Shown here: piece after piece, positions 1,497 to 9,322 of the stretch
How the letters are laid out: every line of letters begins with the position of its first letter
Numbering within the stretch: the first letter of the stretch is position 1
Assembly (NCBI GenBank): GCA_019307645.1
Contig: JAFDJF010000041.1
Location: 1-9,354 of the forward strand
Source: Deltaproteobacteria bacterium
Lineage (GTDB): Bacteria > Desulfobacterota > DSM-4660 > Desulfatiglandales > Desulfatiglandaceae
Direction: 5' to 3'
Length of the DNA: 9,354 nt
Made by a program: the position numbers and the translations under genes
Notes under the pieces: model-generated
What the model saw: only the letters and a program-made list of their open reading frames with translations
What the model was told of the DNA's origin: nothing
Databases searched by the model: none

Positions 1497-1566
1497 ACAA
1501 CATTCGATGGGAGATGAGGATTACAGAACCGGTTTCGTGGAGGTAAAAACCTGAAGGAGTAAGGTG

Positions 1567-2232
1567 ATGGATTCCAATGATAAAAGGGTAGGTGTAATCA
1601 GACACATATTTATGACTCTCATCATGAGCTTGACTGCGACCTGCTTTTTTATAGTCGGATTCGCTGACTCTTTTGTTATCGGGGAAAGGGACAAAACATA
1701 TATAGTAGATAGAACAGGGGAACGCTGGGACGTTACCCAGGCTAAATCCATCGGTTTTAGGCCGGAACAGTTTCAATACGGAATAGGAAGAAACACCATT
1801 ATTCCGCTCGACGATTCATACCTGAGTCGTGATACCGGTAATATTCCCCAAAATCTCCGTGTTATTGGTGTCACAGAAAATTCAACGGAACAAGCCTATT
1901 CTGTTCTTAAACTTTCCAGACACGAGATCGCCAACACGAGTATAGGCGAAAGAAAAATTGCAGTAGGCTACTGACCGCTCGTGGATTTAGCGGCTGTGTA
2001 CAGCCGCCGGATCGATGGACAGATTTTGACACTTGCTCCTTCCGGCTGGACCTACGAAAACACTTTCGTGCTGTATGACAAAGAAACGGGAAGCCTGTGG
2101 TATCCGTTCGAGAAGGGGCTCATGTCCATCCAGGGGAAATTTTTCAAGAGGCGGCTTCCAAAGATTCCGTTTGAAGACACAATATGGAGAGACTGGATTA
2201 AAAAACACCCTGAATCAAGCATACTTGAATAA
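1567..2232 (+). CDS. Putative selenoprotein: DUF3179 family with in-frame TGA read as selenocysteine (Sec136)
   Basis: Read through the TGA at 1972-1974 this is a 221-residue DUF3179 protein. Residues 11-33 form a signal or membrane anchor. The domain follows: VIGVTENSTEQAYSVLKLSR, HE (H119-E120), KIAVGY-[TGA]-PLVDLAAVYSRRIDGQ, then YDKETGSLW (about 170-178), WRDWIKKHP and a C-terminal SSILE. In typical DUF3179 proteins the segment reads roughly VTYCPLCGTAVAFDR, so the TGA falls on the first Cys. Both halves share one frame with no indel. The GTG at 1981 has no ribosome binding site, so a separate second gene is unlikely. A bSECIS-like hairpin follows the TGA. The second family Cys is Val here, and C26 in the anchor is the only Cys. 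ATG 1567 is preceded by GAAGGAG at 1553-1559; the GTG at 1564 is less well placed. Function of the family is unknown. The alternative is a nonsense-mutated pseudogene. Confidence 0.8.
1984..2013 (+). promoter_or_regulatory. Candidate bacterial SECIS element
   Basis: GCGGCTG (1990-1996) and CAGCCGC (2001-2007) form a perfect 7-bp GC-rich stem closing a UGUA loop (1997-2000). Below it, 1984-1988 can pair with 2009-2013 (three Watson-Crick pairs and two G-U pairs) around one A-C mismatch. Known bSECIS features are a stem within the coding region just after UGA, an apical loop with a G among its first two bases, and about 16-37 nt from UGA to the loop. Here the loop has G at position 2 and 22 nt separate the UGA from the loop. 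The hairpin would recruit SelB with Sec-tRNA. The match is by eye; no folding was run. Confidence 0.72.
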
Positions 2233-2277: not shown

Positions 2278-3189
2278 ATGCAAATAGCCATGGTCGGTTT
2301 GGGACGGATGGGCATGAATATGGCAAAGCGCCTCTTGAAGGGCGGGCATGACGTCGTTGCCTACAACCGCACCCGGAAAAAGACGGACGATCTGGTGAAA
2401 GAAGGCGCCGTCGGTGCATATTCTTTGAAAACGGTAGTGGAAGAACTATTACCGCCTCGTGTTATTTGGCTAATGCTGCCCGCAGGCGCTACCGTGGATG
2501 ACCATATTGATCAATTTAAAGGCCTGTTATCACCCGACGACATCATTGTGGACGGGGGAAATACCAACTATAAAGACGATATTCGGCGGGCAGACCTGCT
2601 TGCTGACGAACAGATCCATTTTGTCGATGCGGGTGTGAGTGGGGGGATATGGGGCCTTGAGAAGGGATATTGCCTTATGATCGGAGGAGAAAAAGAAATC
2701 TATAAACATCTTGAACCTGTTTTTCAAACCCTTGCCCCTGAAGATGGCTGTCTCTATTGTGGACCCATTGGTGCAGGTCATTTTGTTAAGATGGTCCACA
2801 ATGGCATCGAATACGGCATGATGCAGGCCTACGGTGAAGGGTTTCAGATCATGGAGGCTTCCCAGTATTCTGAGTTTCTTGATTTTTCTGCAATCGCTCA
2901 TCTCTGGAACCAGGGAAGTGTTGTCCGTTCATGGCTGCTCGAACTTGCAGAAGCGGCTTTTAAGAATGATGACAGGCTTTCAGATATCCGGGGACACGTG
3001 GATGACTCCGGGGAAGGACGTTGGACAGTTCAGCAAGCGATAGACACCGGGGTTTCCGCTCCAGTGATCGCGTTGTCATTGATGCAAAGGTTCAGATCTA
3101 AAGAAAAAGACTCATTTTCCGACAAAGTGGTCGCAGCCCTTCGTCGTGAGTTTGGCGGTCATGCAGTTGTGACTTCGGACAAAAAATAG
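2278..3189 (+). CDS. gnd: 6-phosphogluconate dehydrogenase, decarboxylating (short GndA/YqeC type)
   Basis: A 303-residue enzyme that oxidatively decarboxylates 6-phosphogluconate to ribulose 5-phosphate in the cytosolic oxidative pentose-phosphate pathway. The N terminus is a Rossmann fold with MVGLGRMG and, after strand 2, YNRT; the Arg suggests tolerance of the NADP 2'-phosphate, though short-type enzymes are often NAD-linked. The substrate signature GVSGG is at 119-123, and the catalytic Lys is K171 in KMVHNGIEYG, with H174 and N175. The length fits the ~300-residue class, not the ~470-residue enzyme of E. coli. GAGGTGAAG before ATG 2278 serves as ribosome binding site. The gene begins 45 nt after the DUF3179 gene and ends 27 nt before the glycosidase gene, so it probably shares an operon with the glycosidase and zwf. 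Confidence 0.95.
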   Translation: MQIAMVGLGRMGMNMAKRLLKGGHDVVAYNRTRKKTDDLVKEGAVGAYSLKTVVEELLPPRVIWLMLPAGATVDDHIDQFKGLLSPDDIIVDGGNTNYKDDIRRADLLADEQIHFVDAGVSGGIWGLEKGYCLMIGGEKEIYKHLEPVFQTLAPEDGCLYCGPIGAGHFVKMVHNGIEYGMMQAYGEGFQIMEASQYSEFLDFSAIAHLWNQGSVVRSWLLELAEAAFKNDDRLSDIRGHVDDSGEGRWTVQQAIDTGVSAPVIALSLMQRFRSKEKDSFSDKVVAALRREFGGHAVVTSDKK

Positions 3190-3216: not shown

Positions 3217-5394
3217 TTGCTCGGGAATTATTCAACCAGGGGCTTCAAAGAATATGTCAAAATTGCCAGGCAGATCCTGGACCGGAACTGGACCGGATCC
3301 TATACAAAGCCCTCCCCGAGTTTATATCCTCATCAATGGAACTGGGATTCTGGTTTTATTGCGATCGGGTACGCTCATTACAATCAGGTCAGGGCGCAAC
3401 AGGAGATTCTCTCACTTTTCGAACATCAGTGGCCCAATGGTATGATCCCCCAGATCGTTTTCAATCCGCAGGCCCTTGGCGATTATTTCCCTGAACCCGA
3501 TTTCTGGCAGACTCCCGGCAACAGACTTACCAGCGGTATAACCATGCCGCCAGTCCATGCCACAGCATGCCTGCATATTTACAGAAAAGCAAAAGACCGG
3601 GGTATGGCCAGAGAATTTTTAAAGACAATGTTTCCCAAGCTTTTGGCATGCCATCGATATTTCTACAGGGAAAGGGATCCCGACCACTCCGGCCTTGTTT
3701 ATCTCAGACACCCGTGGGAATCCGGGCTTGACAACTCACCGGCATGGGATGTGCCTCTGAGTAGAATAAAATTTGGTAAAAAGGATCTACCCGTTTATGA
3801 ACGCAAGGATCTCAAACACGGGATTCCTGCTGAGCAGCGTCCCAGCGACGATGAATATGACCGTTACGTGTATCTTGTGGACCTTTTCAGACGTCTCAAA
3901 TATAATGAAAAGGAAATTTACAATCAGTGCCCGTTTCTAATACAGGACGTATTGTTTAACTCCATATTTTGCAAGGCAAACCGTGATCTCAAGGAGATCG
4001 CAAAAGCGCTGAATGAAGACGCTACTGAAATCGATGAATGGGTAGCGCTTTCGACCAGCGCAATTTCTGAAGGCCTTTGGTGTGCGGATTGCAGAAAATT
4101 TGAATCTTTTGATCTTACAGCCGGAGAGCGTATTCATGCCGCCACGGCAGCCAGTTTCATGCCGCTTTTTGCAGGGGCTGCATCAAAGACTCAGGCTGAA
4201 ATCTTATATGACACGATTAATTCCCTCTCTTTCTGTGCGCTCCACCAGGGAAATTGCTTTACTATCCCCAACTATGACATGACAAAAAAGGATTTTGATC
4301 CTAATAACTACTGGAGGGGGCCTGTATGGATAAATATCAACTGGATGATTTCTCAAGGTCTCAAGAACTATGGGTATCAGGAAAAAGCCGATGACATGAA
4401 GCAGGACATTATTCAACTGCCCATTCGCTTTGGTTTTCACGAGTATTTTGATTCCCATACCGGAAAAGGGTATGGCTCTTCGGGCTTCTCCTGGACAGCA
4501 GCCCTTTTCATCGATCTCGTATATGAATATTACGCCAAAGACACGCATGCCGCTTCCCGGCTAATACCGGGTGGCGCCCAACGGCTCAAGAAAAGGAAAG
4601 TTCTCAATGAATTGTCCAAGACCTTGGAGATACCATCTGAAAATGTTGCTTCCAGACTTATGACCTCCATCGGGGATTTAAAAGACAAATTCTACGACTT
4701 GAATCGAGGCCGTATTAATTATGAGGCCATGAAGGCTTCACCCGAATATGGCAGTTACCAGGAAACCGCCTCCCAGCTTCAAGCTTTCGACCCTTCATTA
4801 CTTTATGCTCCATCGCAGAAAAAGGCTTTTTGGATCAATCTATATAATGCTATTGTTGTCCATGGGATTGTGGAACTGGGCATAACTTCTTCGGTCCGGG
4901 AGATCCCTGATTTTTTTGCCAACATTTCCTACCGGGTTGCCAATTTTTCGTTCACAGCCGATGAAATTGAACACGGAATTTTACGGGGTAATTCACGGCC
5001 TCCTTACAGGCCGTTTCGTTTGTTTAAGAAAAACGATCCACGCGGGGATTTAAGTCTTGAAGACATTGACCCGAGAATCCATTTTGCTCTTGTTTGCGGA
5101 TCACGCTCATGTCCTCCGATTCAATTCTATGATGCCGATCACATTGACAAGCAGTTGGACATGGCGGCAAAAAACTTTATTAACAGTTCTGAAGTTCTTA
5201 TTCTCCCTGAAAAGAATAAGATATTTCTTTCTCAGATATTCAACTGGTATAAAAAGGACTTTGGTGGGAAAGAAAAAATATTTCAATATTTGCTCAGGTA
5301 TCTGAATGCGGATGAAGAGGCCGCCTATTTAAAACAAAACATAAACCGCATAAAGATTGAATATCTGTTTTATGACTGGAATTTGAATCATTAA
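3217..5394 (+). CDS. MGH1-like (GH63-type) glycoside hydrolase fused to a C-terminal DUF547 domain
   Basis: A 725-residue, apparently cytosolic fusion. Residues 1-445 form an (alpha/alpha)6-barrel glycosidase like mannosylglycerate/glucosylglycerate hydrolases. Visible motifs are LYPHQWNWDSGF, PNGMIPQIVF, GITMPPVHA, HPWESGLDNSP with probable catalytic acid D172, and HEYFD...GFSWTAAL with probable base E409. Residues about 446-480 are a charged linker. Residues about 485-725 are a full DUF547 domain with KAFWINLYNAIV (W539), HFALVCGSRSCPP (H622, C627, C632), IFNWYKKDF and a terminal YDW. The true substrate is unknown; a glucosyl or mannosyl solute or another alpha-glycoside is likely. The start is TTG 3217, 10 nt after GGGAG (3202-3206); no in-frame ATG or GTG lies between the upstream stop and the conserved domain. 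Its place between gnd and zwf suggests it feeds hexose into the pentose-phosphate pathway. Confidence 0.87.
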   Translation: MLGNYSTRGFKEYVKIARQILDRNWTGSYTKPSPSLYPHQWNWDSGFIAIGYAHYNQVRAQQEILSLFEHQWPNGMIPQIVFNPQALGDYFPEPDFWQTPGNRLTSGITMPPVHATACLHIYRKAKDRGMAREFLKTMFPKLLACHRYFYRERDPDHSGLVYLRHPWESGLDNSPAWDVPLSRIKFGKKDLPVYERKDLKHGIPAEQRPSDDEYDRYVYLVDLFRRLKYNEKEIYNQCPFLIQDVLFNSIFCKANRDLKEIAKALNEDATEIDEWVALSTSAISEGLWCADCRKFESFDLTAGERIHAATAASFMPLFAGAASKTQAEILYDTINSLSFCALHQGNCFTIPNYDMTKKDFDPNNYWRGPVWININWMISQGLKNYGYQEKADDMKQDIIQLPIRFGFHEYFDSHTGKGYGSSGFSWTAALFIDLVYEYYAKDTHAASRLIPGGAQRLKKRKVLNELSKTLEIPSENVASRLMTSIGDLKDKFYDLNRGRINYEAMKASPEYGSYQETASQLQAFDPSLLYAPSQKKAFWINLYNAIVVHGIVELGITSSVREIPDFFANISYRVANFSFTADEIEHGILRGNSRPPYRPFRLFKKNDPRGDLSLEDIDPRIHFALVCGSRSCPPIQFYDADHIDKQLDMAAKNFINSSEVLILPEKNKIFLSQIFNWYKKDFGGKEKIFQYLLRYLNADEEAAYLKQNINRIKIEYLFYDWNLNH

Positions 5395-7098: not shown

Positions 7099-7431
7099 AT
7101 GGAGACCTATTACAAACCGGAAGATTTACCTAAGTTCGAAGAGATTGGAAAAGAATCAAAAGAATTGGCGGACAAATTCTTTGATTATTATGGTGCTGTG
7201 TTTGCTGAAGGAGAGCTCACAGAGAGGGAAAAAGCGCTTATCGCTCTGGCAGTAGCCCACGCCATCCAGTGCCCGTACTGTATAGATGCCTATACCCAGG
7301 CATGCCTGGAAAAAGGGTCTAATCTGTCTGAAATGACTGAGGCGGTTCATGTGGTAACGGCAATAAGAGGGGGCGCTTCCCTGGTCCACGGAATTCAGAT
7401 GCGTAATATCGCAGAAAAGCTGTCCATGTGA
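7099..7431 (+). CDS. AhpD/carboxymuconolactone decarboxylase-like protein (CPYC type)
   Basis: A 110-residue all-helical protein of the AhpD/CMD superfamily. The redox motif CPYC is at 58-61 within AHAIQCPYCIDAYT, followed by MTEAVHVVTAIRGGASLVHG. The YYKPEDLPKF...KFFDYYGAVFAEGELTEREKALIALA pattern matches the subgroup often annotated as arsenosugar-biosynthesis-associated peroxidase-like. I see no ars genes here, so that label says little about its role. AhpD proteins have the CxxCxxxH form; the His position is Tyr65 here, as I recall for this subgroup. Likely role is thiol-disulfide or peroxide chemistry, by inference. AAGGGGG (7084-7090) precedes ATG 7099 by 8 nt. The next gene starts 8 nt after its TGA, so the two are probably co-translated. 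Confidence 0.9.
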   Translation: METYYKPEDLPKFEEIGKESKELADKFFDYYGAVFAEGELTEREKALIALAVAHAIQCPYCIDAYTQACLEKGSNLSEMTEAVHVVTAIRGGASLVHGIQMRNIAEKLSM

Positions 7432-8334: not shown

Positions 8335-9322
8335 ATGACTATTTCCACTTCTGAAAGGCTGAGAAGGTTTTTTTCAGTGTTTGATCACAGCGACCATGTC
8401 TTGATCATGATTAATGCTGATCCTGATGCCATAGCGAGTGCCATGGCTGTTAAAAGACTTTTGTGGCGTAAAATCGCAGGCGTTACGATAACCCACATAA
8501 ATGTTATCCAGCGCCCTGATAACCTCGCCATGATACGACTTTTAGGGATCGGCCTTGTTTATATAGAAGAAATTAATGTGACCCAGTTCAATCGTTTTGT
8601 TATCGTTGATTCTCAGCCTGACCATCATGAATGTTTTTCCATGGTTAAACCTGATGTGATTATCGATCATCACCCTGAAACCTGTGCCGTCGCTTCATAT
8701 TGTGATATCCGTCCGGATTACGGTGCCACAGCCACGATAATGACAGAATACCTTCGGGCAGCGAAGATAAAACCGTCAGTCAGAATTGCAACAGGGTTGT
8801 TTCATGCGATAAAAACTGACACAGGAAACTTTGAAAGACAAACTATCATTGAAGATATTCGTGCCTTTCAGTTTCTTTATCGCCATGCGAACATTCATCT
8901 GGCTCAACGAATTGAACATGGCGAAATAAAATATGGCTTTTTGAAATATTTCGACCAGGCCCTGCACAACAGAAAAATGCGAAAAGGCCGGATTTTTGTG
9001 CATTAATCCAGATGTATGTGTTTTAATAGCTGATTTTTTCATGCGTGTTGATAAGGCAACCTGGAGCATTGTTTCCGGTAATTACGACAAAAAGCTGGTT
9101 GTCATTTTTAGATACAATGGGCTTCAAAAACATGCAGGTAATATTGCAAAAAAAGCCTTTGGCAGTATTGGATCCGCTGGTGGCCATAGGAGCATGGCAC
9201 GGGCTGAGATCTCTGTTTCAGAAATAAAAGAAATGGTTGAAGTCAAAGACGACAAGGCTGTTCAGCAGTGGGTGATAAATCGGATAGAAAAAGGCGATGA
9301 TAAAAAACGCAAAGTCCAATAG
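8335..9322 (+). pseudogene. DHH/DHHA1-family phosphoesterase (NrnA/RecJ-like), frameshifted near 9000
   Basis: Frame one (8335-9006, 223 residues) carries the DHH catalytic domain: NADPDAIASA (D29, D31), VDSQPDHHE (D92), IDHHPE (D111-H112-H113), YGATATIM and ATGLFHAIKTDTGNF. It ends at TAA 9004-9006 just after GRIFVH. The next frame (from about 8996) supplies the missing C-terminal half: NPDVCVLIADFFMRV, WSIVSG, the DHHA1 motif GSAGGHRSMARAE (GGH at 9179-9187), ending at TAG 9320-9322. Such proteins are Mn-dependent phosphodiesterases acting on nanoRNA, pAp or cyclic dinucleotides. All motifs are preserved on both sides, so this is a recent lesion, a sequencing or assembly error, or less likely a programmed shift. 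A few residues may also be missing at the junction. The start is ATG 8335 with a weak AGAAG ribosome binding site. Confidence 0.8.

What the first reader, a model, noticed from the sequence alone, without database searches (positions are those of the whole stretch)
1567..2232. Candidate undescribed selenoprotein: DUF3179 with Sec in place of the conserved CPLC cysteine
Seen: one frame, interrupted only by TGA 1972-1974, encodes both halves of a DUF3179 domain, and the TGA lands on the first Cys of the CPLC-type motif (GY-U-PLVDLAAVYSR). Known: deltaproteobacteria are rich in selenoproteins and Sec typically replaces a catalytic Cys. I do not recall DUF3179 being listed as a selenoprotein family. 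A random nonsense mutation at precisely this codon is unlikely. If real, it implies redox or nucleophilic chemistry for a family of unknown function.
Basis: partly seen in the sequence, partly recalled or inferred. Interest (0 to 1): 0.93.

Follow-up and report, generated by a model that had tools for sequence, protein, structure and literature searches.

The report
Short all-selenocysteine DUF3179 protein branch
This bacterial gene carries an in-frame TGA followed by a conserved RNA hairpin and very likely reads it as selenocysteine, the only cysteine-type residue in the predicted mature part of a small, probably exported protein; the wider family was already listed as a selenoprotein, but this short branch, in which every copy examined has the TGA, appears not to have been set apart before.

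Summary
In detail: one frame (1567-2232, + strand) is interrupted only by TGA 1972-1974 and, read through, matches DUF3179 (E 1.3e-28). The selenocysteine (Sec) reading is strongly supported. All 21 related genome loci found have TGA at this codon; 18 intact ones keep exactly 261 nt from TGA to terminator; the part after the TGA evolves as protein (pN<pS in 153 of 153 pairs); a hairpin after the TGA meets strict SECIS rules in 33 of 34 short genes (background 14%). Of 24 genomes with the gene, 23 carry selA, selB or selD; the window's own genome is not held.

"Undescribed" is wrong: two reviews list DUF3179 (motif UxxC/T), crediting a 2007 study. What looks new: the window belongs to a short, one-domain branch (SH-aLRT 98) with motif U-P-L-V/A, TGA in 36 of 36 copies and no Cys form found inside it. 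Sec is the only Cys/Sec of the predicted mature protein in 31 of 31. A confident model (pLDDT 95) resembles the Rieske fold but lacks the iron-sulfur ligands. Likely function (inferred): an exported single-selenol redox enzyme with a Sec136-His119-Glu120 site.

The parts
1554..1559 (+). AAGGAG, likely ribosome-binding site, 7 nt before ATG 1567 (a GTG at 1564 is an alternative start)
   Evidence: sequence itself
1567..2232 (+). short-type DUF3179 gene, 221 residues if the TGA is read as Sec
   Evidence: PF11376 E 1.3e-28 spanning the TGA; 21 related loci
1567..1671 (+). predicted hydrophobic N-terminal helix (residues 3-31), likely signal peptide or anchor
   Evidence: model helix H3-31; hydrophobic N termini in the short proteins
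1879..2187 (+). residues 105-207, domain predicted to have a Rieske-like fold
1921..1926 (+). His119-Glu120, the candidate partners of Sec136
   Evidence: present in 31 of 31 short rows
1972..1974 (+). TGA, Sec codon (residue 136)
   Evidence: TGA in 36 of 36 short genes
1990..2007 (+). SECIS-type hairpin GCGGCTG-TGTA-CAGCCGC, apical loop 1997-2000, 22 nt after the TGA; an outer stem extends to about 1979-2018
   Evidence: fold -22.5 kcal/mol, z -3.2; rules met; frozen synonymous codons

Best explanation
The gene likely encodes a small exported selenoprotein: UGA 1972-1974 is followed by a conserved SECIS-type hairpin, which would let SelB and tRNA-Sec insert selenocysteine at residue 136 of a short DUF3179 protein, and that residue would act as the single selenol of a redox enzyme. 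Shown: TGA invariance, coding selection after it, the hairpin, Sec genes in most relatives, and no other Cys in the predicted mature part. Predicted: export, and a Rieske-like fold without an iron-sulfur cluster. Inferred: Sec136 is tuned by His119 and Glu120 and, having no resolving Cys in its own chain, is reduced by an outside thiol or partner (one-Cys type); the substrate is unknown. I put the Sec part at about 0.95 and the single-selenol redox role at about 0.55.
For: TGA at the codon in 21 of 21 loci and in every short-type place that spans the codon with a strong score in 395 and 389 genomes (6 and 27 places). TGA-to-terminator distance 261 nt in the window and all 18 intact loci. pN/pS 0.27 after the TGA, 153 of 153 pairs pN<pS, no indels or stops in 18 genes. 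Hairpin z -3.2, 0 of 200 shuffles as good; strict published rules met in 33 of 34 short genes, 15 of 20 long Sec genes, 0 of 6 long Cys genes and 284 of 2000 background TGAs. Codons +7 to +9 nearly frozen: GCT 32, GTG 34, TAC 33 of 34. selA 21, selB 21, selD 21 of 24 genomes over cut-off, 23 of 24 with at least one; 20 of the 21 selD genes have an internal TGA themselves. Sec136 is the only Cys/Sec from residue 36 on in 31 of 31; His119 and Glu120 in 31 of 31 and in 6 of 6 long Cys proteins.
Against: No direct evidence of Sec or of any activity. The window's genome is not held. One MAG with the gene (G004) has none of selA/B/D over cut-off, and tRNA-Sec was not found in 7 of 24, among them two single-contig chromosomes (G005, G014). 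The Cys control for the hairpin is mixed: 0 of 6 Cys genes pass the strict rule, but 32 of 42 cells still pair in the short register and 4 of 6 have at least 6 of 7 pairs. L014 has a further in-frame TAA. Sec-type genes with Ala, Ser or Val after PL lack the usual redox UxxC pair, so a non-redox role (nucleophile, metal ligand) is open. The sister row P0122 has Thr at the column and P0034 lacks His119.
Confidence: 0.68

Rival explanations
1. The TGA is a plain stop: the gene is a pseudogene or makes a 135-residue protein, and the rest is a relic.
For: Gene callers stop there: 14 of the 20 database relatives whose sequence I read end at the residue before this codon. L014 has a second stop, L021 loses similarity soon after the TGA.
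Against: TGA in 36 of 36 short genes while the downstream 86 codons keep length, frame and protein-level selection.
Confidence: 0.02
2. The TGA is read as tryptophan (recoded genetic code or suppression).
For: Five database relatives show Trp at the column.
Against: No TGG in 36 short genes. In 6 of 18 intact loci the gene itself ends in TGA, so TGA is not globally sense there. Long homologues have Cys, not Trp, at the column. P0008 also reads Trp past the usual end, as a table-4 gene call would give. DNA behind these five was not available.
Confidence: 0.02
3. Sec is used, but as a metal ligand or structural/regulatory residue (with His119 and Glu120), not as a redox catalyst.
For: No second Cys; His and Glu invariant next to it in sequence; 22 of 26 long proteins and all short ones lack the CPLC/UPLC pair, counting (5 of 26 have Cys at the fourth position).
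Against: Sec is usually kept for catalysis, and Cys replaces it in long relatives; PMC13188914 regards most uncharacterised selenoproteins as likely redox proteins (passage).
Confidence: 0.25
4. It is a true Rieske iron-sulfur protein with Sec as one cluster ligand.
For: The best structural matches of both models are Rieske-type chains.
Against: No other Cys in the predicted mature short proteins, so the two-Cys, two-His ligand set (recalled) cannot be met; profile comparison with 23 Rieske sequences gave probability 0.4%.
Confidence: 0.03

Closest known systems
DUF3179 (PF11376) selenoproteins listed in PMC9312934 and PMC13188914 (motif UxxC/T)
   Same: Same Pfam family and same Sec/Cys column; long Sec copies with UPLT or UPLC were found here.
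   Different: The window's branch is a one-domain, about 220-residue form with U-P-L-V (30) or U-P-L-A (4 of 34), a separate side of the tree, and no Cys form found inside it. Whether the listed accessions include such a form could not be checked.
Long Cys DUF3179 proteins (CPLC/CPLT)
   Same: Align over the domain with His119, Glu120 and the CPL motif.
   Different: Cys (TGC/TGT) in place of TGA; 4 of 6 have a second Cys in CPLC; longer open frames.
Rieske ferredoxins and NirD-type small subunit (3gce, 8hn2, 1fqt, 3c0d)
   Different: No ligand set for a cluster and no detectable sequence relationship.

Membership tests
DUF3179 (PF11376) | match over the curated cut-off (27 bits) | tested here: met
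   100.7 bits, profile 21-147 of 292; 59 of 59 rows of A4 match
bacterial selenoprotein gene | in-frame TGA aligned with Cys of homologues | tested here: met
   6 long Cys genes and P0034 have Cys at the column
bacterial selenoprotein gene | SECIS element after the UGA (rules of PMC13188914, section read) | tested here: met
   window: 22 nt spacing, 4-nt loop with G second, 7-bp upper stem, -22.5 kcal/mol; strict rule 33 of 34 short genes, background 284 of 2000
bacterial selenoprotein gene | selA, selB, selC, selD in the same genome | tested here: inconclusive
   window's genome not held; relatives: selA, selB, selD 21 of 24 each, tRNA-Sec 17 of 24
bacterial selenoprotein gene | Sec found in the protein | not testable with these tools
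   needs 75Se labelling or mass spectrometry
listed Sec DUF3179 (UxxC/T) | Cys or Thr three residues after Sec | tested here: not met
   V in 30 and A in 4 of 34 short genes
Rieske iron-sulfur proteins | Rieske-type fold | tested here: inconclusive
Rieske iron-sulfur proteins | two Cys and two His cluster ligands | tested here: not met
   Sec136 is the only Cys/Sec of the predicted mature protein in 31 of 31

The most novel reading that the evidence does not exclude
A selenocysteine-only branch of DUF3179 is a new class of exported one-selenol enzyme, built on a Rieske-type fold that carries no iron-sulfur cluster and using a Sec-His-Glu site, in which Sec has never been traded for Cys across the branch.
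Probability: 0.35. Interest if true: 0.68.

Novelty: new variant of a known kind. Interest (0 to 1): 0.5.

Why it matters
A family of unknown function gets a defined active residue, a likely fold and a short list of partner residues to test. A branch with TGA in every copy examined suggests that Cys cannot do the job, which would be unusual, as most selenoproteins have Cys homologues. Database copies that I read are mostly cut at the TGA, so these proteins are likely misannotated as fragments of 125-163 residues.

Tried and rejected
Sec as a Rieske ligand: the spacing H119-x16-U136 first looked like the Rieske CxH-x15-17-CxxH pattern (recalled), but hhalign of 59 DUF3179 domains (57 used) against 23 Rieske sequences gave probability 0.4%, the aligned ranges do not place residue 136 at a ligand loop by simple counting, and the Cys set is missing; rejected. 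Foldseek on both models: no match below E 0.17. Solved structures by sequence: none up to E 1. Pfam over the 59 rows: only DUF3179 passes a cut-off. Rfam over 201 bases around the codon: two chance-like matches only. Conserved operon: none. Viral contigs: no relative. Plasmids: one 68-base piece of gnd only. NCBIfam: no model hits the protein. Hairpin lost in Cys genes: tried as a control, mixed result, so not used as proof. tRNA-Sec near sel genes of G005 and G014: none found. Papers: DUF3179 3 papers; PF11376 1; selenoprotein with 'Rieske fold' 0; selenocysteine with Rieske 40, of which 15 were listed and none bears on this by its listing; bacterial selenoproteome terms 40, 25 listed; arsenosugar terms 1; a last mixed search 4.

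Rows dropped: of 21 loci, L014 (extra TAA) and L018, L020, L021 (fragments) were left out of A2 and of the pN/pS count; L074, L098 and L099 were left out of A4; L020 and L021 out of the 34 genes read by codon.

Full report
What is there. On the + strand, frame 1567-2232 is open but for TGA 1972-1974. Read through, it gives 221 residues that match DUF3179 (PF11376) at E 1.3e-28 over residues 92-220, across the TGA. The match is to positions 21-147 of a 292-position model, so this is a half-length, one-domain form.

Is the TGA conserved? A profile of relatives (A1) found 21 loci among GTDB species genomes; all 21 have TGA at this codon. In the 18 loci with an intact end, and in the window, the distance from TGA to the terminator is exactly 261 nt; in 6 of these 18 the terminator is itself TGA. 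A profile of 18 full-length copies (A2) was run over 395 genomes of the phylum and 389 of the order of G005 (41 and 47 genomes matched at all). Of the places with short-type scores that span the codon, 6 and 27, every one has one TGA inside. Weaker places in those lists are long DUF3179 proteins or fragments that mostly miss the codon. In all, 34 distinct short genes were read codon by codon, TGA in 34 of 34, plus L020 and L021: 36 of 36.

Is the part after the TGA coding? In 18 genes all 153 pairs have pN below pS after the TGA, with pN/pS 0.27 against 0.42 before it, no indel columns and no in-frame stops. Synonymous differences are near saturation, so this is long-term selection. L014 (further in-frame TAA) and three fragments were left out of this count.

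Is there a Sec signal? The RNA from the TGA on folds at -22.5 kcal/mol, z -3.2, no shuffle of 200 as good, with hairpin GCGGCUG-UGUA-CAGCCGC. The rules of PMC13188914 (section read) are an apical loop of 3-9 nt, an upper stem of 4-16 bp, a G in the first two loop positions, 16-37 nt from the UGA and at most -7.5 kcal/mol. With a lenient stem count 34 of 34 short and 18 of 20 long Sec genes pass, but so do 472 of 2000 random TGAs. With an uninterrupted stem of 4-16 bp it is 33 of 34 short, 15 of 20 long Sec, 0 of 6 long Cys, and 284 of 2000 background. L091 passes through another hairpin than the rest. The Cys control is mixed: their pairing is 18 of 42 cells in the long register but 32 of 42 in the short one, and 4 of 6 have at least 6 of 7 pairs in one register, against 31 of 34 short, 18 of 20 long Sec and 240 of 7527 background. 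So the region is prone to pair for coding reasons as well. Independent of that, codons +7, +8 and +9 are nearly frozen (GCT 32, GTG 34, TAC 33 of 34), while Ala, Val and Tyr elsewhere in the gene use several codons. Rfam gave no useful match.

Machinery. The window's genome is not held. In 24 genomes with a short copy, over the curated cut-offs: selA 21, selB 18 of 21 and 3 of 3, selD 21, of which 20 have an internal TGA, tRNA-Sec 17. The controls show that the protein cut-offs are selective (selA 1, selB 2, selD 2 of 14 well-known genomes), the tRNA cut-off less so (5 of 14). ARAGORN named tRNA-Sec in the four loci that I checked. 23 of 24 genomes have at least one of selA/B/D and 19 all three; G004 has none. 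tRNA-Sec was not found in G004, G005, G008, G014, G018, G019 and G374, also not with a relative's tRNA as probe, which gave only a 38-base match in G014 that ARAGORN did not call; the family search scored only part of its candidates. All 21 loci have record titles marked MAG, and completeness is not given.

What kind of branch? On a quick tree of 59 rows with the Sec column left out, the 31 short rows including the window form one side of a branch, SH-aLRT 98, all Sec. Beside it stand P0034 (Cys), P0122 (Thr) and P0011 (Trp in the database). Long DUF3179 genes in my set are mixed: 20 Sec (UPLT 8, UPLA 7, UPLS 4, UPLC 1) and 6 Cys (CPLC 4, CPLT 2). Short genes have U-P-L-V (30) or U-P-L-A (4), unlike the UxxC/T of the reviews.

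Trp forms and annotation. Five database proteins show Trp at the column; one, P0008, also reads a Trp past the usual end, as a table-4 gene call would. I could not see their DNA. Of 20 database relatives read, 14 end just before this codon. P0139, from a contig as long as that of L005, is named a DUF3179 domain-containing protein and has 126 residues, ending at the TGA.

Neighbours. The window has DUF547 (732-1496), a 6-phosphogluconate dehydrogenase (2278-3189), a glycosidase-DUF547 fusion, glucose-6-phosphate dehydrogenase and the arsenosugar-associated TIGR04169 protein. L005 and L008 have ArsS (TIGR04167) and L005 TIGR04169 by model; L004 and L008 have homologues by clustering. A disulfide-reductase-family FAD protein lies in L001, L004, L005, L008 and L015. 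Four of these loci are close relatives on the tree, so this is a weak hint at redox or arsenic chemistry, not a conserved operon.

Literature. DUF3179 occurs in 3 papers of the library: in the selenoprotein tables of PMC9312934 (passage) and PMC13188914 (passages and one section), and in a localisation table of PMC9230427 (passage). The 2007 paper is known to me only from the reference list. I found nothing on a short branch or on the fold in these searches; supplements could not be read.

Verdict. A Sec gene by the comparative tests available, in a family already on the list. New are the short, all-TGA, single-selenol branch and its likely Rieske-type fold.

Noticed in passing
window 8335-9322: A DHH-family phosphoesterase gene is split by a frame change near 8996-9006; the second frame continues the protein. 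Sequencing error or real frameshift not decided.
   Followed up: partly
window 7099-7431: Arsenosugar biosynthesis-associated peroxidase-like protein TIGR04169 (193.6 bits, cut-off 120), without ArsS within this window's annotated frames.
   Followed up: partly
window 3217-5394: MGH1-like glycoside hydrolase domain fused to DUF547, next to a separate DUF547 gene at 732-1496.
   Followed up: no
P0122: A short-type DUF3179 relative has Thr at the Sec/Cys column and a changed motif, perhaps a non-catalytic form.
   Followed up: no
P0004, P0005, P0007, P0008, P0011: Database relatives with Trp at the Sec column, probably TGA translated with table 4.
   Followed up: partly
long DUF3179 loci L055, L057, L063 and others: Long Sec DUF3179 genes often have UPLA or UPLS (11 of 20), outside the UxxC/T motif given in the reviews.
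   Followed up: partly
L066, L053: Long DUF3179 proteins show a second, degenerate copy of the domain without the CPL motif.
   Followed up: no
L014 (6475-6477): This copy, in a record titled Nitrospiraceae, has a further in-frame TAA 34 codons after the TGA.
   Followed up: no
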